Of a stretch of 64,000 nucleotides of DNA, positions 42,279 to 62,580 are shown piece after piece. The translations under genes and the position numbers were made by a program. Each line of letters opens with the position of its first letter. The first letter of the stretch is position 1. Source of the DNA: Pseudocercospora fijiensis CIRAD86 (Eukaryota > Ascomycota > Dothideomycetes > Mycosphaerellales > Mycosphaerellaceae); assembly GCF_000340215.1 (NCBI RefSeq), contig NW_006921551.1:268475-332474 (forward strand), written 5' to 3'. The notes under the pieces are model-generated. The model did not search any database and was not told the DNA's origin. It saw only the letters and a program-made list of their open reading frames with translations.

Positions 42279-44066
42279 TTTAGTAGGCACCTTTAGTAAT
42301 CTTTACTATTTAGCGGCGCTAAGAGGATAATAGTAGTCCGTATACTGCTATTATTATCGGTCTTACGGAGAGCGCCTTTACGCGGAAGACCTAAGGGATA
42401 TATAGCGGACCTTCTTACAACCTCTAGGTACTACTAAGAGGGTCGGATTACTTACTAGCAAAATAGCTCTTTATATACGAATCCCCCCGACGGACTACCT
42501 ACTAAACTAGAGTCTAGAGCCCTTAGGAGCTTCTAGAGGCCCTCTAAGGCCTATTTACTCCTTCTTCTTCCCTCCCCCGCGGCGTAGGTATAGCGGCCCC
42601 TAGCGGCTATACTAGCTAGGTTAGGGTAGGTTAGTTATAGAGATTTTTAGGGGCTTCCGAAAGGGGGTACCGGACTAGGGGTTAGTAGTGCCCCTTAGCG
42701 ACGGTCGAATCGCCTAAAAGCCTCTAATATATTAATAAAGATAATAGACAACTCTTGCAACGTAAGACCTAGTAATAGCTAAATATTACGTCTGCCTCCG
42801 AGTTTTTAACTATTCTTATCAAATTTGTTAGTTACTAGCTTGTCTAAGGAAGCTAGTAGACGTTTACGTAAGAACTAGCTAGATATAACTAGTAATAGTA
42901 AGTCTGCCGAGGACTTAGATACTACTCTAAGCCTAAGTAAATAGTTGTTAGAAACTAATGCATTTGTAGCTAGTTTCTTAAGGATAGTACGCTAAGACCT
43001 AGGGGATTAGGCTAATAAGCCTAATAAGGTCGAGGACTAACGCGCTATAAAGAAGGAACGTAAAAGCAAGAAGAAAGAAAAGTAGGAGAGTAATAAGGCA
43101 GAGAGGGCGGTAATAATAGCGGTAGAGGGTAGCCCTTCCGCTAATATTAAAGAAGCCCCGACCTAACCTTATAGCTACCTAGGCTATACGAGCCTTAAGT
43201 ATTTCAACTCGTAGTACCTAAACCGGAAACAAGGCTACCCCTTCGCTACTACTATAGAAGTTAATAAGGACGAAAGTCTAACCTAGCCTAAAGGAGGTAA
43301 TAGAGACTAGCTAAGGAACCCCCCGCCTAGGTCTGCCTCGTAGGCCCGCCCGTCTACCTCTAACGCTTCTGCTCCCGTAGCTCTATATAGAAAGAAGAGA
43401 GGGACTACCCTATTAATAGTCGGTTCCCCTTAAGTTAGAGTTCTAAGGAAGAAAAGTAAAGCGCTAAAGGAGAAGGCCTTAAGGACTACCTCTAATTTAC
43501 GCGGTCGCACTTCGAATATTAAAGAAGTTACTAGATCCTTAAAGGAAGCCTCTATCTCTAGGTTAAGCACATCGCGTATAGGTAGTAGCTCTACCTCTAC
43601 CTTATGCCTATTAACTTCTGTATTTAAACTACGGGTTACTTTAACTAAGACATTAGTCCGTACGGACAATATCTAAAGTAATATACTAGATAATACTATA
43701 TATTAGTACGCTAATAGAAGGCACCTATTCGTTAGGTAGCCCCCGGCCCTATTAGCGGACCTTCCTAAGCGTCTATATCCCTTCCTTAAGGCGGCCTTTT
43801 ATTTAGGCGTTATTCTAGTTAGCGGCATTAAAGAGGCAGTCTATTAGGCAGGTAGTTTTATTATCGGCCTTTACCGAATAGAGGACGCTAGAAAGGCGTT
43901 AGGAAAGGAGTTTAACTATAATAGTTATAAGTTAGAGATTTCGTTATTTCAGACTAGCGGACCTAGGGTATTCTACTATAAGACTGCCCTACTATCCTAC
44001 GGCTATCTAATAGCTACTACTATTGCTAGGTTAAAGGAACGACCGAAGGATATTTCCTTCTAGTTA
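42279..44066 (+). pseudogene. Tad-like LINE, ORF1 region, RIP-broken
   Basis: Heavily RIP-biased. A + frame just before the gap reads AFYLGVILVSGIKEAVYQAG, SFIIGLYRIEDARKALGKEF, LEISLFQTSGPRVFYYKTAL and ATTIARLKERPKDISF, with TAG only at Gln/Trp-type sites. Upstream (about 43000-43680) a Lys/Ser/Arg-rich low-complexity part is present. Position directly before an endonuclease/RT frame in the same orientation makes this the ORF1 (gag-like) protein. ORF1 proteins bind the element RNA. The 5' end is near the minisatellite border. Confidence 0.55.
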
Positions 44067-44251
44067 NNNNNNNNNNNNNNNNNNNNNNNNNNNNNNNNNN
44101 NNNNNNNNNNNNNNNNNNNNNNNNNNNNNNNNNNNNNNNNNNNNNNNNNNNNNNNNNNNNNNNNNNNNNNNNNNNNNNNNNNNNNNNNNNNNNNNNNNNN
44201 NNNNNNNNNNNNNNNNNNNNNNNNNNNNNNNNNNNNNNNNNNNNNNNNNNN
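44067..44251. other. Assembly gap (185 N)
   Basis: Run of N. The LINE frames on both sides have the same orientation, so the gap is inside one element and true length may differ from 185. Confidence 1.
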
Positions 44252-46450
44252 TAATATTTGTAATAAAGCCTATAATACCCTAGCCTACCTAGAGGTATAA
44301 ACGGTTATCCTAATAAATAAGCAAGGCGTAGAGTCTATACTGCTATATAAGCCTAAGCTATAAAGGGATTTAATATACGTATTTGTTCTCTAAATGTTAA
44401 CTCGGTACGCAATCCCGCTAGGTTCCGTGCCGCTTATAAGTTTATAAAGAGCCGCTAGGTCGATATCTTATTACTATAGAACACGCGCCTAACTAATAAG
44501 ATGTCTTTGTATTACGAGTCGGTGCTTCTAGGCATCTTCTTAATTAACAACCCTTTAGGGAGTAAATTAGGTAGTGTTAGCATCTTAGTTAATAGCTTAA
44601 CTACGACCTTCGCTAAGGGTTTACCCTTTTATATAGACGATATAGGACGGCTATTAGTTTGTAAGCTAATTTGTAAGGGCATTATACTAACTGTTGCGTC
44701 GGTATACGCCCTAGCGAATATTAGTCCCCGAATTACCTTCTTTAATAAAGCTACGGGTAGGTTAACTAAGCTTAAAGAACCGCTAAATATTAACGTAGTA
44801 GGTAGCGACTAGAACTAAGTCTCCTAGGGGATTAATAAAAGAACTAATGTCCTAAGTCGAACCTCTACTATTGCCGCTATACGTCGATTTATTGCAGCCC
44901 TTCGTTTAGATAGTATTACACTTATTAATAGCTAGAGGGATCGCTACCCTAATCGAATTGAGTTTATATACTTTGTTTTAACTATAGGGATCTCTAGGAT
45001 TAATCGAATTTATATCCGGTCTAATTAGAATAGTAGGACTTCTTAGTAGCGAATTGTATTAAATAGCGGCTTGTCCGACTATAAGGTAGTCTCTACTAAG
45101 CTAGGAGGGCTCGATACTAACGCGAGAGGCCTAGGCTAGTAGCGCTTACGCCTACTAATGCTCGAGAAGAAATAGGTAGTAGCTAGCTACTACTAGGCTC
45201 TTACCTTACTTCCTTAGGATAATCCTATTAGTAAATAGCTAAAGTTTAAAGCAGGCATCTAAAAGAGCTTGAATTAGATAGCTAAGGAATAGAGGGAGAG
45301 ATCCCGAATATATACTCGAAATCTAATAAAGCGGAGGTCTGCTTTAATTAGTCGGAGGAAGTCCGATATAGTAGATCGTAACTTAGAGCTCTAAATTGAA
45401 GCCCTTAAGCTACGGGAGAGTTACCTAGCAGAGTAGCAGTTTAAGAGTTACTCTTACTACGCCCTAGCTAAACATTTGCTCTTAGGCGAACGGCCTACTA
45501 AGTAGTTCTTCGCCTTTTATAAAGCAATAACTTATATCTATATCTCGGGTATAAAGGATACGTAAGGAGTAGTTAGGACTAAACCTAATAAAATCTTAGC
45601 TATTGCTAGTAAGTACTACTCTAAGCTTTATACCGAGAAGCTATCCGCCGACTAGGTAAGAGAGAGGGTTCTTAACTATTTAGATAGAGGGATAAGTACT
45701 AAATTAGTAGAGGCCTACTTAGACCTCGACTATATATAAGAGGTATAGCGAGCGCTTAAAAGAGCGGCCGTAGGAAGGTCGCCGGGGTTTAATAGCCTGC
45801 CTTCTAAGTTTTATAAAGCTCTTATACGCGTAGAACCGAAGAGGCCTCCTATAATAATTAATAGAGAGCTAGAGGAAGATCCGCTACTAGTTACCTACCG
45901 TATCGCCGAGGTACACAAGGAGATTATAACTCGGAGCGAACTCCTAGAGGGATAGACAGATAGAGTTCTTACGGTCCTTTTTAAAGAAAAGGGCTCCCCG
46001 GAGGAGCTTAAGAACTACCGTCTACTATTCTTAATAAATGTTAATTATAAGATCTTTACGGAGATACTTATATAAAGAGTTATACGAGCGCTAAAGAGCG
46101 TTATTAGTCTATATTAGAGTGCCTTCTTACTAGGGCGCCTAATAGACGATAACGTAAGAACGGTATAGTTCCTTATCGACCGGCATCGCCTAAGAGGTAA
46201 CAAACCGCGAATTAACGAAGAGCCTATCGCTATCCTCTTCCTAGACTAGAAGAAAGCCTATAATAGAGTTAGCTATACCTACCTTTAGGCGGTATTACGC
46301 AAACTAGGCTTCCCTAACCGGTTTATTAGCTAGTTAAAATTGCTTTACTTAGACACTTGTACTAGGGTTTATTTAAACGGTTACTTAGGAGAGCTAGTAG
46401 AGGTTTACTATAGTATACGCTAGGGTAACCTATTAAGCTGCCCGCTCTTT
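44252..46450 (+). pseudogene. Tad-like LINE, ORF2 (APE endonuclease and reverse transcriptase), RIP-broken and truncated
   Basis: The + frame gives, in order: endonuclease motifs LLLQNTRLTNKM-type start at about 44475, GIILTVASVYALANISPRIT (about 44680), INVVGSDWN (44790, the GDFN box), then a linker and RT: RSPGFNSLPSKFYK (about 45775), VLTVLFKEKGSPEELKNYRL (45970), AFLLGRLIDDNVRT (46120), AILFLDQKKAYNRVSYTYLQ (46230; the expected catalytic Asp pair is mutated to Asn in AYN), LGFPNRFIS and CPLFI (46440). Reading assumes TAG/TAA at Gln/Trp places. The RT stops at CPLFI before the YADD box, where foreign sequence begins at about 46450. Non-LTR elements of this kind are targets of RIP in ascomycetes. 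The embedded 103-codon open frame (44501-44812) is part of the endonuclease, not a gene. Confidence 0.8.
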
Positions 46451-46910
46451 ATTAGACCCCGCAGTAGTTCGGTTTCCGAACTACTAAACGTATATAGTTT
46501 AGTTTCTTAGCGGCGAACTAGCTCCCTAGTTCCGGTTTAGCTTTTTCGAACTATATAGATTCCTAGTTTAAACTAGAGACTATATTAGTTTTACTATAAG
46601 GACACTCTTATTCGACTGCCGGCTACGATTGCCGGCTATAATAGTAACTCTATTACATTTACTACGCTCTTTTGCCGTTACTAGGGCGTAGTTGCCGTTA
46701 CTAGGGCGTAGTTGCCGTTACTAGGGCGTAGTTTTGCTATAAGGATACTCTTATTCGACTGCCGGCTACAATTACTAGCTATAATAGTTACTAGATTGTA
46801 TTTACTACGCTTTATTACCGTTACTAGGGCGTAGTTACCGTTGCTAGGGCGTAGTTGCCGTTGCTAGGGCGTAGTTGCTATTACTAGGGCGTAGTTGCTA
46901 TAGTTGCGAA
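46451..46910. repeat. Duplicated border segment with hairpin and 20-bp repeats
   Basis: Starts with CAGTAGTTCGGTTTCCGAACTACTAAAC-like DNA (46471-46498), a 9-bp-stem inverted repeat GTAGTTCGG..CCGAACTAC. Then a 143-bp unit (CTATAAGGA.ACTCTTATTCGACTGCCGGCTAC) is present twice, at 46594 and 46737, each copy followed by 3-4 copies of GCCGTTACTAGGGCGTAGTT (20 bp). This is where the LINE is interrupted, so it may be the end of the inserted element. Confidence 0.6.
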
Positions 46911-47042
46911 AGCTTACCTATATAACGTTACGTAGGCGGCAACAATTAGGGCTTCGCGATATTCTTATACTTTCAACTTCTTCCTCTATACCTATACCGA
47001 TAATAACTACTATACGCTACGCCCCCGCCCCTTTCCCTTATA

Positions 47043-48470
47043 ATAGTAAGAAAGAAGCGCGCCGCGCGCTAAATAGAAGATAGAACTAAAGACCGCGAGT
47101 TTGTTTTACCTAAGCGTCTAACTAAAAAGCGTAAGACTAAAGAGGAGTACTCTATAAAGAAGAATTCCGTACGAGACCGCGAGAGAAAGGAGAAGATAGA
47201 TAAGGATAAAAGAGCTAAGGATAAGAGAAGAAAGGCGCGGAATAAGGTATTCTATCGATAGCTAGCGCCTATAGAAAAAAGTAAAGGTTAGAATAAGAAG
47301 ATAACCTAAGAGAAGGCTAAGAGGAGGAAAGAATTGTAGCTAGTTTTCGAGCGTAAAGTTCTAGTAGCGTAAGTTAATCTAGCTAGCGGCCGTAGCTAGC
47401 AGCTATAGCCGGTAGCCGTAGCCGGTAGCTATAGCCGGTATATTTTTCTTTAATACGTTAACTAATAGCATTTAGACCTATAGCCGCTACCTCTATCGAT
47501 ACGACCGATAGTAACGGAGATATTTAGATAGCCGAGAACAACAATACTAGAGTTTAGGATACCGCGATAGAGCTTAATACTACGAATAAAGGAACTAAAA
47601 AAAGCGAGGAGATACTATACGTCGATCTAGTAATAGGTATAGTCTTAGAGCCTAACGCTATAGACGATAAGCGCTAGGAGTAGATCGAGTATAGTTAAAG
47701 AGACGAGATACTAGTAAAGGGCTAAGGTATAAGTCCTATTAATCTAGAAAATTATAGTTAAAGCTACTACGAAAAGCTAGCAAGGATTAGAATCGAGACT
47801 AGTCGTCTTTATATCCTTAATATAGAGTAGAAGTTTCTTTATTAGTATTAGAGCGAAGCCTTTACGTCTATAAAGGCAAAGTAGCTTACGATTAATACGA
47901 TCGAGGCTAGGTATCTAGGGACGGTAGAAGTATTACTATAGGAGGAAGGGGTATAGGTAATTATTCTATACTCGGCATATATAGCCGGCGTTCGTAGCCG
48001 GCAGATACTAACAGTTAAATAGAAAGCGTTTCTCGAAGGTAGAGTACTACTACTATATAAAATCTTTACTAAGGCAGAGAGGGCTTATATCCGGAATCTA
48101 AGCTACTAGTAGGATAGGTTAGCGTTAGAATTCTCTAAATCTCTATATAAGCCTCCGAAGGATTACCTATTTTAGCGATACGGCTTTATCTCGACTACTC
48201 CGTAGGTACCCGAAGAAGCTCGAGCGCTCTTTAAGGTCTTTACTAAGAAGCGGAAGGAGTTCGAGGATTAGGATTAGTTAATAGAGCTATTAGTTAGTCT
48301 TAGGTTTCGTAGTTAGACTCGGCCTAAGCATTTGCTTATCGAGTGTCTTATACCGAAAGAGGATAGATTAAGACTAAAAACGAGCTTAGATTCGTTAGGT
48401 ATAGTAGCTCGGTTCCGTTAGTAGGAGAGAGCCGCCGTATAGAAGGCAAAATTTAGGTAGTTAGGGTAGC
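47043..48470 (+). pseudogene. RIP-broken reading frame of unknown function
   Basis: Reading TAG/TAA as former Gln/Trp, a + frame gives a basic N-terminal part (DREFVLPKRLTKKRKTKEEY, RDRERKEKIDKDKRAKDKRR), then after a GCCGGTA-repeat spacer (47401-47440) an acidic stretch and a globular-looking part: KLARIRIETSRLYILNIEQ, ARYLGTVEVLL, VIILYSAYIAGVRSRQILTV, RVLLLYKIFTKAERAYIRNL, SLYKPPKDYLF, TRPKHLLIECLIPKEDRLRL. It is upstream of and co-oriented with the hAT transposase. It may be an accessory ORF of the same element, or a captured gene. I do not recognise it. Confidence 0.45.
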
Positions 48471-49079
48471 TAGGAAAGAAATTCTAGTAGTTAGGCTAGC
48501 TAGGGTAGCTAGGAAAAAAAAATCTAGTAGTTAGGTAGCTAGGAAACAAAAAAAAAGGTAGCTAGCTATTTACTACCTAGCTATTCCTAACGATACGATA
48601 CTATAAAAGAAAGGGTGTTTCCCTATAGCTACTAGTATATATCTACTACTCCTAAGTCCTTACCTTACTATACGAAACCTTAAAACATACCGACCGATAT
48701 TGTATATATACTAGGCGCTATACTAGGAAGGGTAATAACGAGACGATAGTCGAAACAGTCTAGTATATAAGCGAGATTACGATAACGTCGAGAGGAGGTC
48801 GTATACTTACCTTCGAGCCTATCGAGTCCTAGACGACGATTAGGGCTAGATTCATCCTCTCCGAATCCTAGTAGTAGGAATTTATTATAGGGTACTACTA
48901 CCTAGTCCTTACCTTTACGGGGTCTAAGTAGAAGGTTGTTCGGAGATATAAGAACATCGAGTATTAACCCGGAAATCTTCGAAAAGGCTAGCTAGGCGTA
49001 TCTTTAGAAACCCGAGTATATAGAGTAGTTTAATTAATAGGTCTATAAGATATAGTTCCCTTTATACTTACGTTTAAAG

Positions 49080-51800
49080 GAGTATAAACTCCGGAAGTAC
49101 TCGGTACGATAGGGGAGTAAGGAGCGAACGGACATATTCTAGAAGTTCTTTATAGAGGGGGCATTACACTATTATACGACTTCTCGACTTAAAGGTTAAC
49201 TAGTAATTGTCTATAACTTCTACGGTTTAATCTTGAAATACCCGAAACTAGGGGATAGGAACTTATCGCCTACGAACTATCTCTATTCTAAACAGTATCG
49301 GGAATCTTAAGGAGAGAGGAGAGTTAATATAGATATAGCGTTCTAGAAAGGGGTACGTCTTCTAAAATGCCGGCTATAGCTACCGGCTATAGCTACCGGC
49401 TATAGCTACCGGCTACAGATTCCGGCTATAGATTCCGGCTACTTAAATTAACTATAGAGGTCTAGCTAATTATTATAGGCTACGCTTAAGGAAGCTCTAG
49501 GATTAAAGGCTACCGATTTCTCTCCCGAAGACTTTAAGCAACTAGTAAACGAAATGCTAGCTATAAACGGTCTTCCGGAAGACTTCTACGAAAGGGAGTC
49601 TATATAGAAGATATACCTATATCTTATAAACTACCCTCCCCTATTTTTCGGCGTAACAACCTAGCGTATTATATTCGAAAAGAATAAAGAGGCTACGTTA
49701 GACGATATTCGGGAGATCCTCCGTAATACTCGCCAAGTAGCTATTACTATCGATAGCTAGTTAAGCCGGACTATAAGAGCCTCCTTCCTCTCGATTATAC
49801 TATACTTTATTAATTCGGATTAGAAACTCTAGGAACTTATAATCGGATTCCCTAAAATTCTAGGTTCCTATACTAGTAAGGATATAGCGAAGCTTGTCTA
49901 TACGGCAATAGATAGGGTTAGCGTAATAACGAAACTAATCTCGATTACTACGGATAACGCTAGTAATAATCGAATATTGTATAAGGCGTTATATATACAA
50001 TTTACTCGTATATGTCTTTAAAATTACTAATTATATCGATAGGGTCGAGTACGTAGAGGAGATTATAAGGTCTATAATCTAGCTTAATCTTCCGAATATT
50101 AAGCTCGCTACGATTCCGGATACGTACGATAATACGTACGACGATAACGATAAAGAGGAGCCTAGTAATAGCCCTAGCCCTATTAAATCGGAGCCGACGT
50201 CGTTACTAGTTATATCCCTATAGAAGTTTCCCTACCTCGCTTATATAGTTTAAATCGCGATCCGAGCCCTCTTTAAGACGCTTAAAATTGCACTATTAAA
50301 CGACGACTAATAGAAGATCCTAGATAAGGATAAGGCAAAGTCGAAAGTCGAGAAACTTATTATAGCAATAAAACGGGATAAGATAGAGAGCCTCGCTCTC
50401 GTTTTATATAAGGTATAACTTTTGTCCGTAGCCGGTACCTATAGCCGGCAACCTAGTATAGTTCTAACTCTTTTTCTCTAGCTTCGTCGTCTAGCAATAT
50501 ATACAAACTCGAGCTTATAGAGATATAACCGATTCGAGGCTATTTAAAAGAACCTAATCGAGCGCCCTAAAACCGATGCCTAGAATATCGTATAGAATAA
50601 GCGATAGCAAAAGCGGCCTCCTTAGCGCCTACTCCGTTTTACCTAAGACGTTAAGACTCGGTTCGATTCGACTTTCTATATAGTTACGAGGGGATATACT
50701 TTACGTACCGCTCTCGAGATCTATTAGAGTTCCGAGGGTATTAAGTAGCTCGGCCTTACCGCCGCCGAATAGCGCTAAGTAAAGTATCTCGTCGATATTA
50801 GTAAGTATTACGCGAAGGTTACTACTACGATTAGAAGAACCCGAGGACCGACGATCTACCTTGTCTTTACGTACTATAACTAGCTCTTTAACGAGCTCGA
50901 GGAAACCGTAGCTAAGCTAGCTAAGAAGAGCGTTCCCTAGAAAGTAGCTATAACGAAAGCTATAGACACCTCCTATACTAAGTTGTATAAATATTATAGT
51001 GCTACCTTTAAGTCGTTCGGGGATATCTATAGCGTTACGTACTTGCTTAACCTAGTAGAAAAGGATATATACTAGTAGAGGCCGGAATAGAAGGCGGACG
51101 AGGTATAGCCGAAGTATTACTAGACTATTCTAGAAATAGTAGAAAAGATATTCTACGAGCGTCGGAAGGAAACTAGTTTAAATATAGCTTCTATAAAGAA
51201 AAAGAAGGTTTAGAAGGCTCCGATATTATACCTGTTTTATAGGTAGGAAGTAGAGGTAGAAGAGGAAGCAACTACTAAAGTAAATAAAGAAGAGTTCGAT
51301 CTCTATCGGCGCGCGAGTAAGTACAAACCCGTAGGCTCGGAAAGAGGGCTAATAATCTCTAGATCTTACCGGTTTTCTAGACGAATTCGGAGACGATATT
51401 CTCGCTATATAGTAGCGGTTAGAGCCTAAGTTTCTAACGATAGCGTCGGTCGCTCGGGACGTCCTCGCTATCCCGAGCGTAGGTATAGGCTATAAGAGGT
51501 CTTTTAGTATCGCTCGTTACTAGGGCCGCTTTAATCGAATATACTCGCCTACTACCTTCGAATCTATTATAGTATTCCGATACTATCTCCTCTACTAGAA
51601 TCGCTAAGGTAGGTTACTAAAGATTATACTAAAGGAGTTAATCGAGGAATTAGAAAACCTTAAGATCGAAGAAACCTAGGAGCGCGAAGAGAATACGAAA
51701 TTTAGTCTAAGCGAAACCCTAATTAGTAATAACGAAGAGGAGGAGGGTAGAGGTAGAAGGCGATACCGGGTCGAGAAGCGGAAACGTATATAGGCTTAGA
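49080..51800 (+). pseudogene. hAT-superfamily transposase, RIP-broken
   Basis: Order of motifs on the + strand: N-terminal part with TDIFQKFFIEGALHYYTTSR (about 49130); LGLKATDFSPEDFKQLVNEM (49500); VAITIDSWLSRTIRASFLSI (49740) and INSDWKLWELIIGFPKILGS (49815), then ISITTDNASNNRIL (49945), the conserved region with catalytic Asp of hAT elements; an intron 50413-50481 (GTATAA...CTCTAG); RFDSTFYIVTRGY (50665); LTAAEWRQVKYLVDI-type segment (50760); YNQLFNELEETVAKL (50880); and the C-terminal dimerisation region PKFLTIASVARDVLAIPSVG, RYQGRFN, FESIIVFRYYLLYQN (51425-51600). All breaks are TAG/TAA at Gln/Trp positions plus one possible frameshift near 51370. Family typical length (about 700-900 aa) is matched. 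The element is dead. Confidence 0.85.
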
Positions 51801-52167
51801 GTAGCTTTAAGGAGACGAAGCGTTTACATATAAGGTAATATAGCCGGCATATATAGCCGGTATATATCCGAAATGTATTTCGAATTCCTAGGACCTAAAC
51901 AGACTAGTTACTATAGCAACCGACCCCGCTTACCTACGGACTATTTCTAATTCTCTATTCGCTCTTCCTCTCCTTCTTCCCTTTCCCTATATTCTTAAAG
52001 ACAAACATACCTTAAGGATTCGGCTCTTCGGGCCTTCCTAAGCCGGCTACCTCCCCTTCCTTAAGCTACTATCCTTTATTCGAATCTAACGATAACCTAC
52101 TAAGGCGGTTTAATAGAAGACTATTTATTCTAGAAGGCAAGAAGCATTAATATCTTCTTACGATTAT
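51801..52167. other. Spacer with GCCGG repeats between hAT and histone-like frames
   Basis: Contains TAGCCGGCATATATAGCCGGTATATA (51839-51864) and a CT-rich stretch (51940-52000). No gene seen. The CT-rich stretch could be a former promoter of the following frame. Confidence 0.4.
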
Positions 52168-52881
52168 ATGCTTATTAATTTTCCAGGTCCTACCGATATA
52201 CCTTCGTCGCCTAAACGTATAGATAAATATCTTTAGAGGCTAAAGGGTAAGGGTAAAGTAAGCTAAGTATAGGGAGACCGTAGCGAGAACGAGATATCGG
52301 AAGAGTAAGGCTCTCCGTAGTATATACGAAGGAAGGGGGTTCCTCGGAAAATAGTACTAAAAAATAAGAAGGCTATAGGTAGATAGGAGAAAGCTAAAAA
52401 GAGTAGGCGGACGAAGACTATCGCGAAGAAAAGTTATCTTTCTATTAAAAGAAAGGGAATAAGGCAGGACTCGACGATAAAGAAGCGGCGCTTTAAACTA
52501 GGTACTATTACCCTTCGCTAGATCCGGCTTTTCTAAAACAAAAGAGGGACCGAGCTTTTAATCCCTAAGACTCCCTTCTAGCGACTCGTCCGAGAAATTA
52601 CATTAGATTTTCGGTCTAGTATACGATTTACGGCTAAGGCGATTAGTACTCTTTAGGAAGCTACGGAGGCATTTCTCGTAACCGAGCTTAAGCTTTTAAA
52701 CCTCCTTGCTATCTATACGAAGCGGGTTACTCTTTAAAATAAAGATATATAGCTTCTAGCTAAAATTCGGCGTCGGTTTATAGCGGATTAGTTAGAAATT
52801 ATATTTAGTCGTTAGATTAACCTAGGAGGAGGCCTATTTTCGCATCCTTTTACTAGCTATAGGCGCCGGCTATATTTCTAA
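52168..52881 (+). pseudogene. Histone H3-fold protein (H3/CENP-A-like), RIP-broken, inside the transposon block
   Basis: From the ATG at 52168 one + frame runs 237 codons to TAA 52879-52881, interrupted only by TAG/TAA codons at places fitting Gln or Trp. The N-terminal about 100 residues are Lys/Arg/Ser-rich. From 52482 the histone fold is clear: KKRRFKLGTITLR*IRLF, GTELLIPKTPF*RLVREIT (alpha-N and alpha-1; H3 has GTVALREIRRYQ and TELLIRKLPFQRLVREIA), RFTAKAISTL*EATEAFLVT (alpha-2), NLLAIYTKRVTL (H3: NLCAIHAKRVTI) and KDI*LLAKIRRR (H3: KDIQLARRIRG). The tail is much longer than canonical H3 and lacks ARTKQTARKS, so a CENP-A or other variant type is more likely than canonical H3. The frame may have continued into 52882-53270. 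No host gene context; co-oriented with the hAT frame. Confidence 0.75.
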
Positions 52882-53272
52882 TTTTATCTCCGCGCCGTCC
52901 CTAAATCTAAGGTATAAAGTAGAAACCTAGCGCTCTATATTTACCCGGCTATTACAGAGACGAGCTATATTTAGATTAGTTTCTTCGTATATCGCGACCT
53001 AGCGGATAGTAAGCGAAAGGGCGATAGAACGTTTATAATAAGTCTCTATTTAGACCTAAAATATAAAGGTCCTAAGGAGCCCTAGCATCCTAACTATAAG
53101 GAGATTCTTTAGTATTAGCACTTTAATCCTCTATACTACGAGGCAGATAGTAAGCCTACGAGAGAGAAACTTTAACGAGAAATTCTCTATAATACGTAGC
53201 GCTATTATATAGCTATAGATACGTACTAAGTCTAGCAACTCGAAGAAGAATTAAGATAGCGTATTAGCGACC
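52882..53272 (+). pseudogene. Continuation of the histone-like frame, unknown
   Basis: The same + frame stays readable if TAG/TAA are taken as RIP stops: LYIYPAITETSYI, ISFFVYRDLADSKRKGDRTF, LYLDLKYKGPKEP, YKEIL then HFNPLYYEADSKPTREKL. It could be a C-terminal extension of the histone-like protein or a separate exon. No family recognised. Confidence 0.35.
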
Positions 53273-53835
53273 GAGGAGGAGATCGATAGTATACTAGTAG
53301 AGTCGAGGTCTTATAAGCGAAGTATAAGATAATATAGGCTCTTAGTCGTATAGAGTAACGTACTATATAAATAACTAGGCATACTACTCTTATTTACTTA
53401 CGACCTATATCCTAGGATGCTCTTCTCGTACTTTTTATACTCTTTTCTAATACCTTACCTATAATCGCTCCGCGACAACCGAGTAAATATAAGCTATAGG
53501 ATTTCCGCTCGGTACCTTAGCCTTCGAGATACGGCGGAGTTGATTCTCTATAATAGTCGCTAATACGAGGAGGAGATCGATAGTATACTAGTAGAGTCGA
53601 GGTCTTATAAGCGAAGCATAAGATAATATAGGCTCTTAGTCGTATAGAGTAACGTACTATATAAATAACTAGGCGTACTACTCTTATTTATTTACGACCT
53701 ATATCCTAGGATACTCTTCTCGTACTTTTTATACTCTTTTCTAATACCTTACCTATAAGCGCTCCGCGACAACCGAGTAAATATAAGCTATAGGGTTTCC
53801 GCTCGGTACCTTAGCCTCCGAGATAGGGCGGAGTT
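53273..53835. repeat. 269-bp direct duplication (period 294)
   Basis: Copy 1 53273-53541, copy 2 53567-53835, separated by 25 bp. Both begin GAGGAGGAGATCGATAGTAT and end GGCGGAGTT. They differ at about nine positions, mostly transitions (for example GTATAAG/GCATAAG, ACTTACG/ATTTACG), so RIP acted on both, or the duplication followed most of the RIP. Confidence 0.92.
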
Positions 53836-53987
53836 AAATTTAGAGCGATAGCCGGTACTCGTAGCCGGCATATAGAGACGGTAGTAGGCCTTTTCCTACT
53901 AAATAACTAGCTTGTTTAGTATAGCCTACCTAATATTTCTTATATTTACTAGCAATAGGCCTAGGTTACTTATAAGATTACTATAGC

Positions 53988-54262
53988 TAGTAAAGGACAG
54001 AAACTAATACTACTACTACTACTAGTAGCAATAGTATAGGCAACCGAGGGTAACATAACCTATAGCAATATAGGCAGCTATGTTTAGTATAATAGGATAA
54101 CAAACGAGTCGCTTAGGCTAGTAACTAGGGCCCTAAAATATAGGCATTGTAGAAGTGTAACATAAACAATATACTATACGAGGTTAATACTCTGTCTACT
54201 ATATAGAAGGAGGCCTCTTATATAGGCTTAAAACTTAGCCTATAGTATAGGGCCGGTTACTA
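53988..54262 (-). repeat. 275-bp LTR-like element, copy 1
   Basis: Reverse complement of 62306-62580 with the same length (275 bp) and roughly 80-85 percent identity by eye. The ends on the minus strand are TAGTAACCGG...CCTTTACTA, which fit TG...CA ends after RIP. No internal domain of the same family is found beside it, so it looks like a solo LTR. Confidence 0.75.
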
Positions 54263-54451
54263 GCTAATATCCCTCCCTTTCTTCGTATCTAACTAGATAC
54301 GCTTCACATTGCGCGCTTAAAACAAACAAACAGTTATACGGCCTTAGGCATCTTAGCTAAGGCGATTTTTCAGAAACTCCGCAATAATACCCCCGGGGTA
54401 GTATTATTCCTAGATTCTATTAACATATAAGAACTAATCTACCTCGCCGAC
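54263..54451 (-). repeat. LTR remnant at the 3' end of the minus-strand unit
   Basis: On the minus strand, TGTTAATAG starts at 54425, 27 bases after the ORF stop (54452), and the palindromic core TACTACCCCGGGGGTATTATT (54404-54384) follows. This copies the arrangement at 669-712 (stop, TGTTA, core), so it is read as the head of a 3' LTR, cut by the 275-bp element on the left. Confidence 0.5.
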
Positions 54452-57240
54452 TTACTACTGCTTTAACATACCGTAATCCTTACTAGCAATAACCTTATTA
54501 GCCGGTCGGTCTTCGAGAACTCCTCCGTAGGCGTTAAAGCTATTAGTACCGAAGTACTCGGCCTCGTAGCGAGCTTAATTAATTAGTAGGTTAGTAGCCT
54601 TGTCCTGTATAGCGTTCTCCTACTCGCGTAGATACTCCTTAAGCTCCTCTTTACTAAACTAGAGGATCTGTTTAACTTCGTTCTAAACAACGTAACTTAA
54701 CTAAGGAATTCTACCGACTAGGGTATTAGAAATATATCTAAGGCCTTCGACTAAGATAGCCGTAGGGAAGGGAAACGGTACGAAGGTATTCGAACCTAGA
54801 AGGGCGGTTAGATTGCGGTGCGCCTTAGTAACCTTAGAGACGGTTAAGTTGTCGTAGCCCTTAATCTTAGTGCCGTTAATAACGCGAGAGTAGCCTAGAT
54901 CGATTAATATACGGTCGCTCTTAGGCTTTAGATTACTATATAGAAGGTGTAGTATCTAAATAGAGACTTCGCATTCCTTTAGAGGGTTAAGGATCTACTA
55001 AGCTACCTCGCCTTCGTTAGCCTAACTATCGAATATATGCCCGAGGTCGTTAGTAGTAAGGTGCTTGTTAGTAAGCTTACTAATCTTGTTTAGTAGAACT
55101 AGGCTATAGTCCTTAAGCTTCTTAACCTAGTTCTCGAAGACCTCTAGTTCGTATATATCCTCGACGATAGTAGAGTAGGCGGTCTTATCCTTAGATATAA
55201 GAGAAACCTTAATGCGTAGATAGCTAGCACTCTTACTAGCTACGAGCTTAACTATATCTTATTTAAGACGAGAAGTCTCCTTAGTAGGGCAGTTCTTATA
55301 ACCGCCTTTACCTACCTTAAAGTACTTAGTAGGCTTAGGGACAGAGATAAGCTCGTATATATAATTAGGGCAAAGGGCGACGGCTAAGAGCTATAAGGCA
55401 GGATACTAACGGACGATTTAGTTGCTTACGCTATAGGTCTAAAGGGTATTACGGCCTTCCTACTTAGATTTAGGAAGCTTACGTATATACTAAAAGTATA
55501 TACGAAATTCCTCCTATATTAGGTCGACGATAAGGGAATAGTACGCTCTACGAGGCGATTGTATCTATCCGAAGACTCGAGGGAAGATAGCATTACTAGT
55601 CTAACGAAAGCGGTCGAAGGAGGTACCTTAACCGAGGATACTAGCGACTAACTTATACCGACGATTAGTTAGAGTAAGATCGCGAGTAATAGTACTAGTA
55701 GGGTTAAATGCGTAGAGTCCTAAGGAGGTCGGGGTAGTAGTAGGGCGTCTAGGAAACTAGTTAGTATAGTTACCCTTAAGGGTAGCGAAGGCATCCTAAT
55801 TAGTAATTTCGCGTCTAATCTTTAGTAAGCGACCGACTAGAACATTCGTCTTAGTACTAGTATAGAGACTATAGACCTTAGCGGCCTTCTTAACATAGTT
55901 AGTATATATAGTAAACCGCTCTTTACCTAGCTTACTAAGGTTATCGAGTTGTTAATAGATAGATAGAGCGGTAGGCGCTTTACCTATATCGGCCTTAGTA
56001 ACTATATCGATCTTAGTAATAAGGTACGTAATAGAGTCGCCCTTATAAGACCTATAGATGTTCTTAGTTAATAGGGCCGGCGAGAGGCCTCTATCCCTAC
56101 GCTCGCTAAAGGAGCCTTTAGAGGATACGTCTTCTAGCGGCGTATCTAGTATATTAATATCCGAGTTACTATAGTTAGTACTAGTACTAGTACTAGTACT
56201 AGTACTAGAAGGAGCGCTATACTTCTTAGTAGCCTTACGGAGGGCCTAGCGAGCGTATAGTGCCTTCTAACGCGCTGCTTCGGCCTTAGCGCGCTCGTCT
56301 TTAACTACCTAAGGGACCTTACGGTTACGGGTCGAGCGACGATCTTTAGCCTATATCTCTATAGCGAGCGCAAGACTAGCAGTAGTATTAGCCTCCGTTT
56401 CTAGGCGAAGAACCTTACGTTTAAGAACATTAACGATAGGAGCCTCTTAACCTTTAATAATAAAACCTATACTATTAATGCGATAGCCCTTCTCTTTTAG
56501 TAGATCCTTAGTAGTCTAGGCGTTAAGATCGACCTAGACAATCGCATCGTTATATCGCTTCTAGTAGGACGTCGTAAAGTCGTTAAGCGCAAAGGACAAG
56601 TTAAGTAACTACTTGCCTACCTTCTTACTAGCGGTAGATATACGATAGATTATAGTACGGGAAAGGTACTTAGCGCCTTAGCGACGGACTAGATACTTAT
56701 TAACAAACGAAGAGACCTGCTTAGCACGCTCTTATCTACTGTAGGCGAAGTTAATAAGGCTCTTAGGAAGACTACTCGGACCTCCCTAATATTCGAATGC
56801 CTAATCGAGGGTCTTAAAGCGTAAGCGGATCTAGGTACCGGCTATCTCGAGGCTATAGACGATAGAAAAGGCTTGTTAAATATCTATATCGTTAAGAACG
56901 TCGCGCTTAAAGATACGCTTACCGATAGACTAACGCAGGTTGTTTATACCGTACGTAACTAAGATAGTAGCCTTCTCGATGTTCCTATTAATAACGCGTA
57001 GTAGGGTACGAGCGTTCTCGATCTTCTCTTATAGGTCTTCGAGAGCGGTAACGATCTAGAAGTAGTGCTCGAGACTAGTTATAGTAGCTAAGGCGCTATC
57101 GGATAGGGCTTCGATTAGGACTAGGGCGGCTAGGCTTAGGTTAATAGAAACAGGTAGGTCGCTACTACTACTAGCGCCTAGCGGGTTCGGGGCGCTAGAA
57201 GATATCTAGTCGACCGAAGCGGAAGCGGGTTAGAAACGAG
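54452..57240 (-). pseudogene. Large unknown ORF of a minus-strand LTR-bounded element, RIP-broken
   Basis: Reading minus-strand TAG/TAA as former Gln/Trp, about 900 codons stay in one frame down to TAG-TAA at 54457-54452. Segments in order: YNDAIV and LLKEKGYRINSIGFIIKGQE, NVLKRKVLRLETEANTTASL, a Ser/Thr repeat from an (ACTAGT)n-like microsatellite (56178-56210), ITYLITKIDIVTKADIGKAP, VKKAAKVYSLYTSTKTNVLV, YFKVGKGGYKNCPTKETSR, DILHLLYSNLKPKSDRILID-like part, KGYDNLTVSKVTKAHRNLTA and a C-terminal RYEAEYFGTNSFNAYGG. No protease, RT, RNase H or integrase motif was seen. It may be a non-autonomous LTR element with a Gag-like or captured protein. Confidence 0.5.
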
Positions 57241-57700
57241 TTTGCAAAACGTGTTCGTTGCTTAATAATAATAATTAAAGAGCTTAGATAGAAGAGGGGG
57301 CAGTTAGGCGGTAGCGAGTTAGTTAGTGTTCGAGTAGAAGAAAAAGCTTAGGAAGCTCGCTTTAAATAGTATACGAAGGTAACGTAGTCCGTATATTCCG
57401 CGCTAGTAAAGCAAACGGATAACAGCTATATATAAAAGTAAAGCTATATACGAGACCTCTTTATTATTAGGGCAGGCTAAAGTTTAACAATCGATCTAGC
57501 TAATTACTAGCGGCGACGACGCGCCTTTATTAACCTTTAGCTATCGTAGATTCTCGCGCGCTCGAAATGTAACTAGTTAGTTCGAGTCTCTAGTAGGAAT
57601 CTATAGTAGTAAGGTTAGCGGGACTAATAATACCCCTAGGGTAATATTAGCTTTTCTAGAGATACTCGGCGATAAGGAGTAAGTCGCCTAGGCCTAGCGT
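57241..57700 (-). repeat. Probable 5' LTR and leader of the minus-strand unit
   Basis: Contains the recurring palindromic core (TAATATTACCCTAGGGGTATTATTA on the minus strand, 57648-57625) preceded by CTAGAAAAG, similar to the CTAGGAATAATAC before the core of the 3' copy. The TGTT head itself is not preserved. Boundaries are approximate. Confidence 0.4.
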
Positions 57701-58599
57701 AGCTAATTCGTCGGTATATTAGCCTATAGTACTACTATTACGGATATAGTATTACCTTTTATATTAGCAAGCACGTAAAGGTAGTCCGTACGTTTACCTT
57801 CTTCCTTCTTCTAAATACTAAGCTTAATAGCCTAAGGTCCCTATTCTTAGAGGCTATAGGCCTAGGTTGCTATATCCCTCTAAGCGATAGGAAGGGAAGG
57901 GGATAGGGAACCTCCCTTTCTTAGTATCCTACGTAACTAGTACTAATTAGGGTAGGAACAGTTTCTAGTAGAATCTTATTATCGCTGCTACCTAAAGGTA
58001 GTTGCTAGAGTCTAGGAAACTAGAGGGAAGTAGTCCTAGAGGGGTAGGGGGTTAGGTTCGGCTATCTTCCTAATACTACCCCTAGGGTATTATTAGGAAA
58101 ATGCCTCCTATAGTTCTACCTAAGGAAACAAGAGCAAAGGAGTATAGTTATAGCAATATCTATCGAAGGTAAAAGCAAAAGCAAAAGGCAATAATAAGAT
58201 AAGCTAAACAAACAATAAATAAGAGTATAAGTATAAGTAGGAATAGATAGTAGGGCAGTAAGGACTAAAGGTACAGGATAGTACTATATTAATAGCGCGG
58301 AGAACGATTAATAAGAGTAAGGAAGCAACGTAGTAAGGTAGGTAGGGAAGAGCAAGTAATTATCTAGTCTCGGGGTCGCCTATTACCTATAATTCTAGGC
58401 GGTTATCGTCGCTAGACTAGTCGAGTTCCTCCTCGGAGTTAGAGTTAGATAGCTAGAAGTCTAGTTCGCTATCGGAATTAATATCGGAAATGCTCTACGC
58501 GTAATTAATACGTATATAACCCTCCCTTTGTTTATAAGTTATTCCTAATAGCTTACTAAGACGTATCTAGGGATGCGTATAGTTGTTAGGTAGAATAGG
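57701..58599 (-). repeat. LTR and 3' flank of a second minus-strand gypsy element
   Basis: On the minus strand TGTTTCC begins at 58130, and the palindromic core (58097-58071, TAATACCCTAGGGGTAGTATTA) follows, the fourth such site. Right of it, 58130-58600 joins the integrase frame. The left part (57701-58060) shows no gene. Confidence 0.45.
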
Positions 58600-59640
58600 A
58601 TCTATAATCGCGGTAGGATCCTCCTCTCGATAGGTATCTAAGGTCGGTAGAGGGTCTATAGAGGCACTAATTTCCTCCTCGGTAGGCGGAGGGCAGGTAG
58701 GCTCTCTTAATTCGACGATCTTCTTTAGGTTAGCCCGAGGGTGCGAGTGCTTTAAGGTAGTACTATTAAGTTCCTAAAGGCGGTACGTAGAACCGTCGTA
58801 AAGGACCTCCTATACTCTATAAGGCCCTTTCTATTTAAAAGCTAGCTTGTAGGAGTAACTATATTCTAGCTCGGACTAGTATAGGAGAACTATATCGCCT
58901 TCCTTTAGAGGTTCCTAATTAATAGCATTATAGTTATCGAAATACTGCTTAGCCTCTTCGCGAAGGCGACGCTACCGAGCAAGTCCCTCTTTAGAAGTAG
59001 TAGTTATCTCCTTAAGAGCCTTAGCCTATAGGGTAAGAAGATCCGCTCGAGTGCGAACAGATCCCTAGTCGTAAACGCTATACGTACGGTAGGACAATTT
59101 AATCGGAAGAATAGCGTCTCTTCTAATTATAACCTCTACTAGCGTAAGCCTAGTAGTATCGATAACGGTCGTTCGGTCGGCCTAGAGAAGGGCTAGGATA
59201 TAGGTAGAGATCGCGACTAATCTATTACTACTATTAGTTAATTTAGATAAGGCATCGATTAAAGACCGATAGCTACGCTTAACGATGCTATTAGCTTACG
59301 GATAGTATAGGGAGATACGAACGTTCTTCGCCCTATATAAAAGAAGCAGCGTCTATACTTCTTTAGCTATATTAGTCGTAGCATTATCTAAGAGGACTTT
59401 ATAGGGCGTGCCCTATCGGCAGAATAGGTCCTTAAATAGGAAGGTAGCTATATTATAGGCGGTAATAGCACTATAGCCCTTGCGGTAATAATAGGCTTCC
59501 GGCTACCGAGAAAGACCTTCTTAGATAATATAGAGGCTATTATTTCGGCTTAGATAAACCCTATTACCGTACTACCGTTCCCTAACTAATTAGATAGTAG
59601 GGATACGTAGCTCGCCTAGTCGTCGGTAGCTATTTCTAAA
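58600..59640 (-). pseudogene. Ty3/gypsy integrase, RIP-broken
   Basis: Minus-strand frame: LLDNATTNIAKEV, LLYRAKNVRISLYYP*ANSI, KRSYRSLIDALSKLTN, ILALL*ADRTTVIDTTRLTL, REDAILPI-type region (RRDAILPIKLSYRTYSV), RTRADLLTL, RQRRLREEAKQYFDNYNAIN, LKEGDIVLLYQSELEYSYSY, KGPYRV*EVLYDGSTYRL. These are the integrase catalytic core (the motif after D,D: YHPxxxGxxER, here degraded) and the C-terminal domain GDxVLL...GPYRV. No chromodomain follows. Stops are at Gln/Trp positions. The element is truncated where the plus-strand LTR starts (59645). Confidence 0.75.
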
Positions 59641-59644
59641 GTTG

Positions 59645-60000
59645 TGTTACGATCTTAGCGACTTGTATATATAATTCGAGGTTACGTAGCTTTAGGTTAC
59701 GTAACCTAATGCCTAAGGCATCCGCCGAGTAGACAAAAGCCTCTCCCGTAAGAGAACCTCTCTCTCTTTCTTCTTTAACTCGTTATTAATTTAGATAGCC
59801 TCTTAATTAATATCTTAATAGAATAACGAGTTCCTTTATTATCTACGATAACGTCGTAGGTGCTATCGTTTATCTATACGAAGAATTATATCGCTAGCGA
59901 TCGCTATCGCCCTTTTACGCTTCTCGTTATACGATAGCGCTAACAAACCTTATATCGCATTAAGACCTATATACTAATCTATATTAGGTATAGTAAGCTA
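59645..60000 (+). repeat. LTR-like start of the plus-strand gypsy element
   Basis: TGTTACGATCTTAGCGAC at 59645 is an LTR-type head right at the junction with the inverted integrase fragment. AT-rich with TATATATAATTC (59670-59681). The LTR end is not certain; AACGTCGTAGGTGCTATCG (59860-59878) could mark the primer-binding area. Confidence 0.45.
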
Positions 60001-62305
60001 CTCGACCGTAGTAATACCGCCGATTCGTTATAGATCCTTTACGACTGCCTACTAATCGTAGTAGCGGCTCGGAATATACAAATACGCCTAACCGAGTAGG
60101 AATAGCCGGTACCTAGTTAAACGGTGTACTAGAGCTACAACTACCGCAGGGTATACGACCTAGCCTTACAGACATCGATAGCGTACTATATTAGCCTCTA
60201 CCTAGCAATCTCTAAGACTTCTAGTAACTCTTTAGTAGAGTAAATAAGTAGGAGGCCGCCGAATATATCTTTTAGCGTATAACTGCACTATATTAGTTAG
60301 CAGCCACTCTTCGTTAGCAATACTAGCAAGAGGCAGAAACGCTTAAGTAGGTATAACAAGCTTATTATAAGACTAATACCTACCTTAATAACGAATTAGT
60401 ATAGGCTCGCGCTAAAGTAGAATACTAACGCTAGGCCGCCGAAGTAGTACGTAATATACTAAATATCGCGTACTAACAACGTAATAACCTAGCTTAGCAA
60501 GCCGTACGTCTATAATAACAATAGTCTTCTATAGAAGATATCGCCCGCCGAGCTAGCGAATAAGCTACTTATACTCGTCGTAACGCCGAGGCGTCCTTAT
60601 TACGCAATCCGGTCGGCTAAGGACCTATACTAGATAATAGCCGACCCCTATTCCGTCGCCCGTTTAATGTATATCTAGTACCTAAAGATACTATACTAGG
60701 TAGTAGTAGTTCTCGTCGACCTCTCGGCGCCTTCGACTACCTTAGCCGCTTACGCTTTAGTCGTCTAAACGCTAACCCTAAGGGTTAGGATAATTCCTTT
60801 AATATTAACGATAACTTTAGTTATAACCTAGTACTACGATCTCGCGACCGACTAGACCCTCTCCGCCGCCCTCGATTTAACTATAGCTTCGACGACGATA
60901 ATAACTATATTAGATATAGTAAGAGCGAGAAGTATCTAGATCTAGAAAAATACGATAGAGACCGTAAGAAGCTAAAGCCCTTCCTTACTAAGCTTACGAT
61001 TAAGTTAATAATTAATAATAATCGCTTTTTAATACTATAAGACCGGTTAATATATATATATAGTCGTACTACTAGTAAAGCCTACTCGATAGTCTAGCTA
61101 TACGTCCGTTACGACGAATAGGGCGTAATTATAGATTTCGACGATCTCGATAACTTCCGTAACCTATTAGTTAATACCTTCGGCGATCCTAACGAGGTCG
61201 CTACCGCTAGTTATAAGCTAGACAACTTAAAGTAGAAGAATAAGGAGTTTGCTTACTACCTTATAGAGTTTAATCGACTTAACGCCTTACTTAGTTATAA
61301 AGGCCGAGCTTAGGTTAACGCTCTTAAGCGTAGCCTGTCTTCCGAATTAAAAGTAGCGCTTAGTAATATATATAATAAACCTACCGACTTCTTAGTATTA
61401 TATCGACGACTAACTATTATCGATAATCGGCTCCGCTAGTATCGCGTAGAAAGTAGCCGCGACAATACTAAGCTAGGATTAAGCAATACTACTAACTAAG
61501 GCTCGAATAATAACCGTAGTAGTAATAATACTAGCGGCTCTAATAATTAGTACGCTCTATAAGGATATATCGCCCTGCGTAATAACTAAGGACAATTTAC
61601 CTCGGCGAACAATAATAATAACCCTAGTACTACTACGACTACGACTATAACTGTCCGCGACCTAGATACTATAGACCTCTCTACTACTTAAGGTTAGGGT
61701 TAGGGTTAGGGTTAGGGTTAGGGTAATCGCCGCCGCGTAACGATTAAAGAGAGAGATCGCCGCCGCTACGAGAGTTTATACCGCTTCTATAGTAGCAACT
61801 ACGTCTGCTCCGATACTACTTATCTAGAGCTTATCCGCCGCGCCTAAGGCTATAGTAATCGTCTAAATACTAATATCTCCGCCTTTAGTACCGCCGCTCC
61901 GACCGATCTACCTCCTATAAACGATAAGAACGCTAATAATAGTAGCGATAAGGAGGGAAAAGTATAGCTCTTAAACAAAGTCGCGTTTAAGAGCCTATAC
62001 CGATAGAGTTACCTATACCGTTATTTCCGAAGAACCTATACTACTATTATAGAAAGAAATATCGGTAGTAGAAAGATTTAAAGATTAGTTTATTAGTATT
62101 ATTAGGAAGTATTATACCCGAGGGCGATAATAAATATCTCGTCTTATATTATACTCTAACGGCTTATAATAAGCCTTAGTCTAGCTTACTAGATATAGGG
62201 TAGGATATCGAATACTAATTATTAGTAATAGTTAATTGCGGTTATACCGGTTTATCTTTTATTAACTTATATTACGCGTACTAATACTAGCTCCCTATTA
62301 TTAGC
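60001..62305 (+). pseudogene. Gypsy Gag and start of protease, RIP-broken
   Basis: The plus-strand frame shows GVIIDFDDLDNFRNLLVNTF, GDPNEVATASYKLDNLK, EFAYYLIEFNRLNALLSYKG, LKRSLSSELKVAL and YRRLTIIDNRLR (61130-61440), the usual retrotransposon Gag core (FGDPN...F...F..L......L...LK..L). It continues over Asn/Ser-rich linkers and a telomere-like array to VNCGYTGLSFINLYYA (62230-62275), reading as the start of the aspartic protease. The frame is then cut by an inserted 275-bp LTR. Stops are TAG/TAA at Gln/Trp. Confidence 0.75.
61692..61723 (+). repeat. Interstitial telomere-like array, five TTAGGG copies
   Basis: GG followed by five perfect TTAGGG units. It lies inside the gypsy gag frame, where it reads as alternating stop(TAG)-Gly. 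A former CAGGGC/CAGGGT Gln-Gly repeat changed by RIP would give exactly this. Confidence 0.9.
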
Positions 62306-62580
62306 TAGTAACCGGCCCTATACCTATAGGCTAGTTTTAAGCCTATATAAGAGGCCTCCTTCTATATTGTAGATAGATTATTAACCTCGTATAGTACATT
62401 GTTTATATTACACTTCTATAATGCCTATATTATAGGGCTCTAGTTATTAGCCTAAGCGACAGTCTCGTTATCCTATCTTACTAAACATAGCTGCCCGTAT
62501 TGCTATAGGTTATGTTACCCTCGGTAGCCTATACTATTGCTATAAGTAGTAGTAGTAGTATTGGTTTCCGTCCTTTACTA
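62306..62580 (+). repeat. 275-bp LTR-like element, copy 2, inserted in the protease
   Basis: Inverted relative to 53988-54262, same length. The flanking gypsy protein reads across the insertion: VNCGYTGLSFINLYYAYQYQ-type sequence before, LKEPRRLTAFDSSFVVDVT after. So it inserted into the older gypsy element and remained as a solo LTR. Target-site duplication is not clear because of later mutation. Confidence 0.8.

What the first reader, a model, noticed from the sequence alone, without database searches (positions are those of the whole stretch)
52168..53272. Histone H3/CENP-A-like reading frame embedded in a RIP-mutated transposon block
Seen: a 237-codon frame with Lys-rich tail and a histone fold matching H3 at alpha-N, alpha-1, alpha-2 and alpha-3 (for example NLLAIYTKRVTL, KDI*LLAKIRRR). 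It is co-oriented with a hAT transposase, and its breaks are RIP-type, so it was present in repeated copies. Known: RIP acts on duplicated DNA. Inference: a mobile element captured or carries an H3-like variant, which could influence chromatin at its insertion sites or at centromeres. A plain host H3 pseudogene would not be expected to be repeated, have a long new tail, or sit between transposon ORFs.
Basis: partly seen in the sequence, partly recalled or inferred. Interest (0 to 1): 0.9.

Follow-up and report, generated by a model that had tools for sequence, protein, structure and literature searches.

The report
Histone genes in a dead transposon
The window holds a mutation-riddled copy of a fungal jumping gene that carries a histone H3 look-alike; this was already reported for what is very probably the same banana-pathogen genome, but the family's second histone gene seems to have introns and both genes look as if they once worked as proteins.

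Summary
A + strand frame with a core-histone domain (PF00125, E 6.8e-21; best solved match H3.3C, E 7.1e-24) lies behind a hAT transposase remnant in a RIP-saturated block and is repeated at least 39 more times in the genome. It is already in print: Dhillon et al. 2019 (PMC6710886) described an H3-carrying hAT family in Pseudocercospora fijiensis with 784 RIP-killed H3-like copies. Genome size, place and exon number of the intact H3 gene, element length, TIR, TSD, two H3-like genes per element and 16 extra residues in the second all fit; the species is my inference. The window copy starts at 46453, is cut near 53986, and holds only the first H3-like gene, best bounded at 52150-52791.

Beyond the paper: (1) the second H3-like gene has two intron-like stretches, one being the published '16-residue insertion', against the published retrocopy reading for that gene; (2) between subfamilies the exonic gaps are multiples of three and replacements are conservative, so the genes probably once worked. 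Codon-position tests are inconclusive; no RNA was seen. CENP-A identity and any chromatin effect are not shown.

The parts
42001..64000 (.). RIP-saturated, AT-rich repeat block
   Evidence: eleven 2-kb bins: GC 0.36-0.43, TA/AT 1.74-2.33, (CA+TG)/(AC+GT) 0.11-0.43
46453..46472 (+). Left terminal inverted repeat (20 bp) of the H3-carrying hAT element
   Evidence: the full-length C7 copy has this terminus at both ends, 19 of 20 positions alike in inverted orientation, flanked by an identical 8-bp target-site duplication; the window's right end is missing, so its own duplication cannot be checked
46453..53986 (+). 3'-truncated copy of the H3-carrying hAT element (full-length copy on contig 7: 9,603 bp; the right ~2,350 bp with the second H3-like gene are absent here)
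   Evidence: 96-98% identity to the C7 copy up to window 53996, then a different repeat
49485..51514 (+). Probable hAT transposase remnant, on the same strand as the H3-like gene; extent uncertain
   Evidence: hAT-like text at 49485-49934 (recognised from memory); Dimer_Tnp_hAT PF05699 E 0.085, below cut-off, at 51410-51514 in another + frame
52150..52791 (+). First H3-like gene: about 213 codons, lysine-rich N-terminal tail plus histone fold; start and stop inferred
   Evidence: ATG at the matching place in copy L039; stop at 52789 in 51 of 51 other copies, as at many RIP-fixed codons inside the frame too, so the end rests mainly on where subfamily similarity breaks off; gaps inside it are multiples of three in 3 subfamily II and 2 subfamily III copies compared
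52399..52770 (+). Core-histone domain of the first H3-like gene (residues 78-201 of the frame from 52168)
   Evidence: PF00125 E 6.8e-21
53272..53835 (+). Direct repeat of 270 nt (53272-53541 and 53566-53835, 97%) behind the H3-like gene
53987..54270 (.). Separate ~284-nt repeat that interrupts the hAT element; a second, inverted copy lies at 62299-62577
   Evidence: many genome copies of 53980-54600

Best explanation
The frame is the first of two H3-like cargo genes of a ~9.6-kb hAT DNA transposon family that is published from Pseudocercospora fijiensis; the window's element is truncated at its 3' end and dead through RIP. Shown: histone domain, repetition, element ends with an 8-bp target-site duplication (on the contig 7 copy), RIP, and two H3-like genes in the full-length element. 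Inferred, fairly well supported: both were protein-coding genes on the moving element. The second keeps two intron-like stretches (one within a codon of the host H3 gene's second intron), and reading frames stayed intact while the element split into subfamilies. Inferred, weakly supported (about one in three): the element made its own H3-type proteins, which entered nucleosomes or occupied H3 chaperones and so eased transcription or movement of the element until RIP destroyed its copies.
For: Histone domain. Copies: 57 matches, 40 of them near full length; of 150 scored histone matches (of 772 candidates) 148 carry in-frame stops and two do not, the host H3 on contig 6 and a piece on contig 5 that I read as host CenH3. 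Element: 9,603 bp, 20-bp TIRs, identical 8-bp TSD. Two H3-like genes in the C7 copy and in 3 of 4 subfamily II loci, the fourth stretch covering only the second gene. Introns of the second gene: intron 1 has the GTAAGT donor in 18 of 19 loci and the acceptor in 19 of 19, lengths 67-116 nt; intron 2 is 48 nt, 4 of 15 main-family loci keep an intact GTATGT donor and 11 differ by RIP-type changes only, 15 of 15 keep the branch-like ACTAAT and the acceptor; 8 of 100,000 shuffles of the insertion pass a lenient test whose signals I chose after seeing the sequence. Frame conservation: in the II_C12 comparison with the C7 copy 5 of 5 exonic gaps are multiples of three against 5 of 27 elsewhere (Fisher p 0.0013); subfamily III differs by 3 and 12 in the first gene. 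Replacements against host H3 are conservative more often than in any of 5,000 shuffles for each gene (12 of 18 and 15 of 36).
Against: Transversions between subfamilies show no clear third-position excess: gene 1 histone part 4, 1, 5; gene 2 exon A 2, 4, 3 and exon B 4, 5, 4 by codon position 1, 2, 3; only exon C has 2, 1, 7. The second gene's introns have fewer fixed transversions (1 of 137 sites) than its exons (32 of 384), the reverse of ordinary constraint. None of 4 subfamily II copies keeps an intact intron-2 donor. Some copies carry frameshifts in the tail: L075 and L076 of 4 extra loci read; 9 of 51 copies have a 1-nt deletion somewhere in 51868-53272; II_C17 has a 1-nt gap at the very edge of exon C. 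The published Fig. 7 legend reports exon-exon junctions in manually curated de-RIPped copies for both H3-like domains (figure not seen). No splice junction or transcript was seen. The host name is inferred, and the paper's assembly has 56 scaffolds against 30 contigs here.
Confidence: 0.85

Rival explanations
1. Passive capture as published: a hAT element picked up a processed H3 transcript or retrocopy, which hitch-hiked without function and was destroyed by RIP.
For: Published inference from missing host introns and from exon-exon junctions in curated copies (PMC6710886, Results read). The first H3-like gene indeed reads through the second host intron position and the later intron position of the second gene. 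Transversion tests by codon position show little constraint between subfamilies.
Against: The second gene has two intron-like stretches, one a single codon from host intron 2. Exonic gaps between subfamilies are multiples of three in the copies compared. Conservative replacements exceed 5,000 of 5,000 shuffles.
Confidence: 0.3
2. The cargo derives from the centromeric H3 variant (CenH3/CENP-A) and acts at centromeres.
For: In its C-terminal stretch the first gene matches host CenH3 at 24 of 41 against 21 of 41 for H3. Exon C of the second gene matches both at 11 of 18, with a slightly higher score for CenH3 (58 vs 54).
Against: In the N-terminal stretch the first gene has 16 of 27 against 19 of 27 for H3. 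The second gene's exon B is only slightly nearer H3 (19 of 22 vs 17 of 22; 13 of 17 vs 12 of 17), but it has an intron beside the H3 intron site, where the host CenH3 frame reads through. I see no loop-1 insertion of the CENP-A kind in the alignment; that this is a CENP-A hallmark is recalled.
Confidence: 0.08
3. An ordinary pseudogene of the host H3 gene that happens to lie between transposons.
For: Broken frame next to transposon remnants.
Against: Repeated at 96-97% on many contigs, with the same flanks in the three copies whose surroundings were fetched, and enclosed by TIRs and a TSD in the C7 copy.
Confidence: 0.01

Closest known systems
H3-carrying hAT family of Pseudocercospora fijiensis (Dhillon et al. 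2019, PMC6710886; abstract, Results, Methods and first part of the Discussion read; figures not held)
   Same: Genome of about 74 Mb, intact three-exon, 136-residue H3 on scaffold/contig 6, element of 9.5-9.9 kb (9,603 bp here), 20-bp TIR, 8-bp TSD, two H3-like copies with 16 extra residues in the second, RIP mutation: very probably the identical family and genome.
   Different: The paper calls the 16 residues a mutation and reports no introns and a transcript or retrocopy origin; here they form a 48-nt intron-like stretch and a further one is found. A find for 'subfamil', 'CENP' and 'CenH3' in its text gave no occurrence. I did not count copies, so its 784 copies in 471 elements are neither confirmed nor contradicted.
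H3L-carrying hAT of Pyrenophora tritici-repentis (Manning et al. 2013, PMC3538342; passages read)
   Same: A hAT element with TIRs carries an H3-like gene together with the transposase; the authors raise possible chromatin effects.
   Different: About 5.6 kb long form (10 copies) and 2.3 kb short form (16 copies), 26 very similar H3L genes, a few of them truncated by frameshifts, with ESTs; one H3L per element. Dhillon et al. found no similarity between the two hAT elements and regard it as independent.
Transduplication by Pack-MULEs and related DNA transposons in plants (mentioned in the two papers above; otherwise recalled)
   Same: A DNA transposon acquires host coding sequence between its TIRs and multiplies it.
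   Different: Here the histone fold is kept nearly whole, twice, on an element that also has transposase remnants.

Membership tests
hAT DNA transposon superfamily | 8-bp target-site duplication | tested here: met
   identical 8 bp on both sides of the C7 copy; only this copy was checked on both sides, and the window copy lacks its right end
hAT DNA transposon superfamily | short terminal inverted repeats | tested here: met
   C7 copy: 19 of 20 end positions alike in inverted orientation; the right end also in the C1 and C4 copies, the left end also in the window and in a copy within L063
hAT DNA transposon superfamily | transposase with hAT dimerisation domain | tested here: inconclusive
   PF05699 E 0.085, 13.1 bits against cut-off 21.4; hAT-like text in another + frame; no PF04937 hit in the window frames scanned; the published family has DUF659 only (PMC6710886)
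P. fijiensis H3-carrying hAT family (Dhillon 2019) | 9.5-9.9 kb element with 20-bp TIR, 8-bp TSD and one or two H3-like copies | tested here: met
   C7 copy; the window copy itself is truncated
P. fijiensis H3-carrying hAT family (Dhillon 2019) | host is P. fijiensis | tested here: inconclusive
   73.94 Mb, intact 136-residue H3 with two introns on contig 6 fit; 30 contigs against 56 published scaffolds do not match by number; no species name was available
Histone H3 family | core-histone fold of H3 type | tested here: met
   sequence matches to PF00125 and to solved H3 chains; no structure was predicted
CenH3 / CENP-A | closer to CenH3 than to H3 | tested here: inconclusive
   no consistent preference; differences of one to three residues
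CenH3 / CENP-A | localises to centromeres | not testable with these tools
   needs chromatin experiments

The most novel reading that the evidence does not exclude
The transposon encoded two working H3-type histones of its own (one intronless with a long tail, one intron-bearing and close to canonical H3), kept by selection on the element because they altered chromatin in its favour: a mobile element that brings its own nucleosome parts.
Probability: 0.33. Interest if true: 0.75.

Novelty: already known. Interest (0 to 1): 0.38.

Why it matters
As found, it is a published case. What could matter is the correction: if a captured H3 gene had introns and both kept their frames while the element diversified, they were not inert retrocopies but cargo that worked. 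Two hAT elements without detectable similarity that each carry H3 would then point to a benefit for the transposon and make 'do transposons use their own histones against silencing?' a testable question.

Tried and rejected
Own-genome search with the frame as a protein failed because of its stops; a DNA query was used instead. Pfam scans of all six frames of window 46453-53996 at E 0.1 find only the histone; a scan of pieces at E 10 adds only the weak hAT dimerisation match. Six frames of 54271-62298 give nothing at E 0.01. Genome searches for DUF659 (21 matches) and the hAT dimerisation domain (47 matches) gave none in the window. Transversion tests by codon position were tried as a selection test and are too weak. 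The identity excess over shuffles is not used as evidence, because synonymous change on the host H3 branch inflates it; only the conservative-replacement fraction is. A plain pseudogene and a chance match were rejected. A phylogeny with outside relatives could not be made, since the protein database was off. One review (PMC8616336, passages) only cites the 2019 paper in the passages shown.

Full report
Observation. The frame from 52168 on the + strand, read with its stops as X, matches PF00125 at E 6.8e-21, and the best solved structures are H3 chains (E 7.1e-24). Its 25 in-frame stops are TAG or TAA, as RIP would leave. The 1,105-base interval occurs at least 39 more times in the 73.9-Mb genome at 96-97% (40 of 430 candidates scored). 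A genome search with the histone profile scored 150 of 772 candidates: 148 carry in-frame stops; the two without are the host H3 on contig 6 and an exon on contig 5 that I read as host CenH3. This is far beyond chance.

The element. A copy on contig 7 is complete: 9,603 bp, 20-bp terminal inverted repeats (19 of 20 positions alike) and an identical 8-bp target-site duplication. The window copy begins at 46453 with the same terminus, follows the full-length copy to about 53986 and is then interrupted by another repeat; the right 2.35 kb, with the second H3-like gene, are not in the window. A probable hAT transposase remnant lies upstream on the same strand. The support is soft: E 0.085 for the dimerisation domain, hAT-like text recognised from memory, and the two lie in different + frames.

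Already published. Dhillon et al. 2019 (PMC6710886; abstract, Results, Methods and first part of the Discussion read; passages) report for Pseudocercospora fijiensis a three-exon, 136-residue intact H3 gene on scaffold 6 and 784 H3-like copies in 471 hAT elements. Full-length elements are 9.5-9.9 kb with 20-bp TIR and 8-bp TSD, with two copies per element and 16 extra residues in the second. A 2026 paper gives that genome 74 Mb and repeats the capture (PMC13041039, passages). The structural points fit, so I take the genome to be that species. Copy number was not counted here, no tool named the species, and the paper's 56 scaffolds do not equal the 30 contigs held. The 2013 paper on Pyrenophora tritici-repentis (PMC3538342, passages) had already shown a hAT element with an H3-like gene.

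What the paper did not report. [quoted passage not shown] In the second H3-like gene I find instead two intron-like stretches. (a) The 16 residues are a 48-nt stretch which, taken as an intron, lets the flanking exons meet in frame at the FE/DTNL position of H3. Of 15 main-family loci 4 keep an intact GTATGT donor and 11 have RIP-type changes in it; 15 of 15 keep a branch-like ACTAAT and the acceptor. Of 4 subfamily II copies none keeps the donor intact, and all 4 keep the other two signals. Of 100,000 shuffles of the stretch 8 pass a lenient test for the same signals, which I chose after seeing them. (b) A stretch, 91 nt in 10 of 19 loci and 67-116 nt in the rest, separates the histone tail from the fold; 18 of 19 loci have GTAAGT and 19 of 19 the acceptor. 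Its length varies through a GCCGG minisatellite, and in the 91-nt form it shifts the frame, so that tail and fold share a frame only after splicing. It lies one codon from the second intron of the host H3 gene. The first H3-like gene, the one in the window, reads through both places. Against this stands the paper's Fig. 7 legend, which reports exon-exon junctions in curated de-RIPped copies for both H3-like domains (figure not seen). No RNA was available, so splicing is inferred from sequence. Searches for a prior report were made; no title or abstract start in their listings suggests one, but only open-licence texts are held and most listed papers were not opened.

Were the cargo genes functional? 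For: diverged subfamilies (II, about 76-86% to the main family over the aligned stretches; III, 88%) give a test within the element. Between II and I the gaps in the first gene are 3, 6 and 21 nt in 3 of 3 copies aligned. In the second gene's exons they are 3 and 3, with 15 more in one copy and 30 more in another, among 4 copies. A 1-nt gap lies a few bases before the first gene's inferred start, and one copy has a 1-nt gap at the edge of exon C. In the II_C12 comparison 5 of 5 exonic gaps but only 5 of 27 others are multiples of three (p 0.0013). Part of those 27 lie in a stretch of under 50% identity where the alignment is poor; leaving out 6372-7055 of the C7 element by hand, 1 of 12 remain. 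Subfamily III (2 copies) differs from I by 3 and 12 in the gene, by 7 and 13 upstream and by 3 behind it. Compared with host H3, 12 of 18 replaced residues of the second gene (C7 copy, part of exons B and C) and 15 of 36 of the first (window copy) are conservative, more than in any of 5,000 shuffles each. Against: transversions between subfamilies do not concentrate at third positions except in exon C, the introns carry fewer of them than the exons (1 of 137 vs 32 of 384), and some copies have frameshifts. On balance the frames were probably under selection for part of the element's history, perhaps relaxed later.

CENP-A. The first gene is about equally distant from host H3 and host CenH3; the second is slightly nearer H3 in exon B, level in exon C, and has an intron beside the H3 intron site. 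The centromere idea has no positive support here, but membership by similarity is inconclusive.

Verdict. The revision of its gene structure and the frame conservation are the new part, and they make the bolder reading, a transposon with working histones of its own, possible but not shown.

Noticed in passing
L012:3682-3772 and L012:3956-4003 (contig 7 copy, second H3-like gene): Two intron-like stretches in the second H3-like gene; the second equals the published '16 amino acid insertion'.
   Followed up: yes
L033+L069, L046+L070, L040+L071, L072 (subfamily II); L073, L074 (subfamily III): Diverged subfamilies of the H3-carrying element exist in the same genome; 3 of the 4 subfamily II loci show both H3-like genes, the fourth stretch covers only the second.
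   Followed up: partly
second H3-like gene, main family versus subfamily II: Introns show fewer fixed transversions (1 of 137 sites) than exons (32 of 384); unexplained.
   Followed up: partly
L046+L070 versus the other subfamily II copies, second H3-like gene: The stretch around histone loop 1 differs strongly between subfamilies and even within subfamily II, while neighbouring stretches are alike.
   Followed up: no
window 53987-54270 and 62299-62577: A ~284-nt repeat in two inverted copies; the second is absent at the matching place of the contig 4 copy, so it is probably an independent small insertion rather than the arms of one large element.
   Followed up: partly
window 61688-61729: Short internal array of telomere-like TTAGGG units.
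   Followed up: no
window 42061-42285: 19-nt tandem repeats at the edge of the RIP block.
   Followed up: no
window 47375-53881, scattered: GCCGG-type 13-nt minisatellites in both orientations within the element; a similar motif fills intron 1 of the second H3-like gene.
   Followed up: no
window 54271-62298: Eight kilobases of RIP-mutated DNA with no Pfam match at E 0.01 in six frames.
   Followed up: partly
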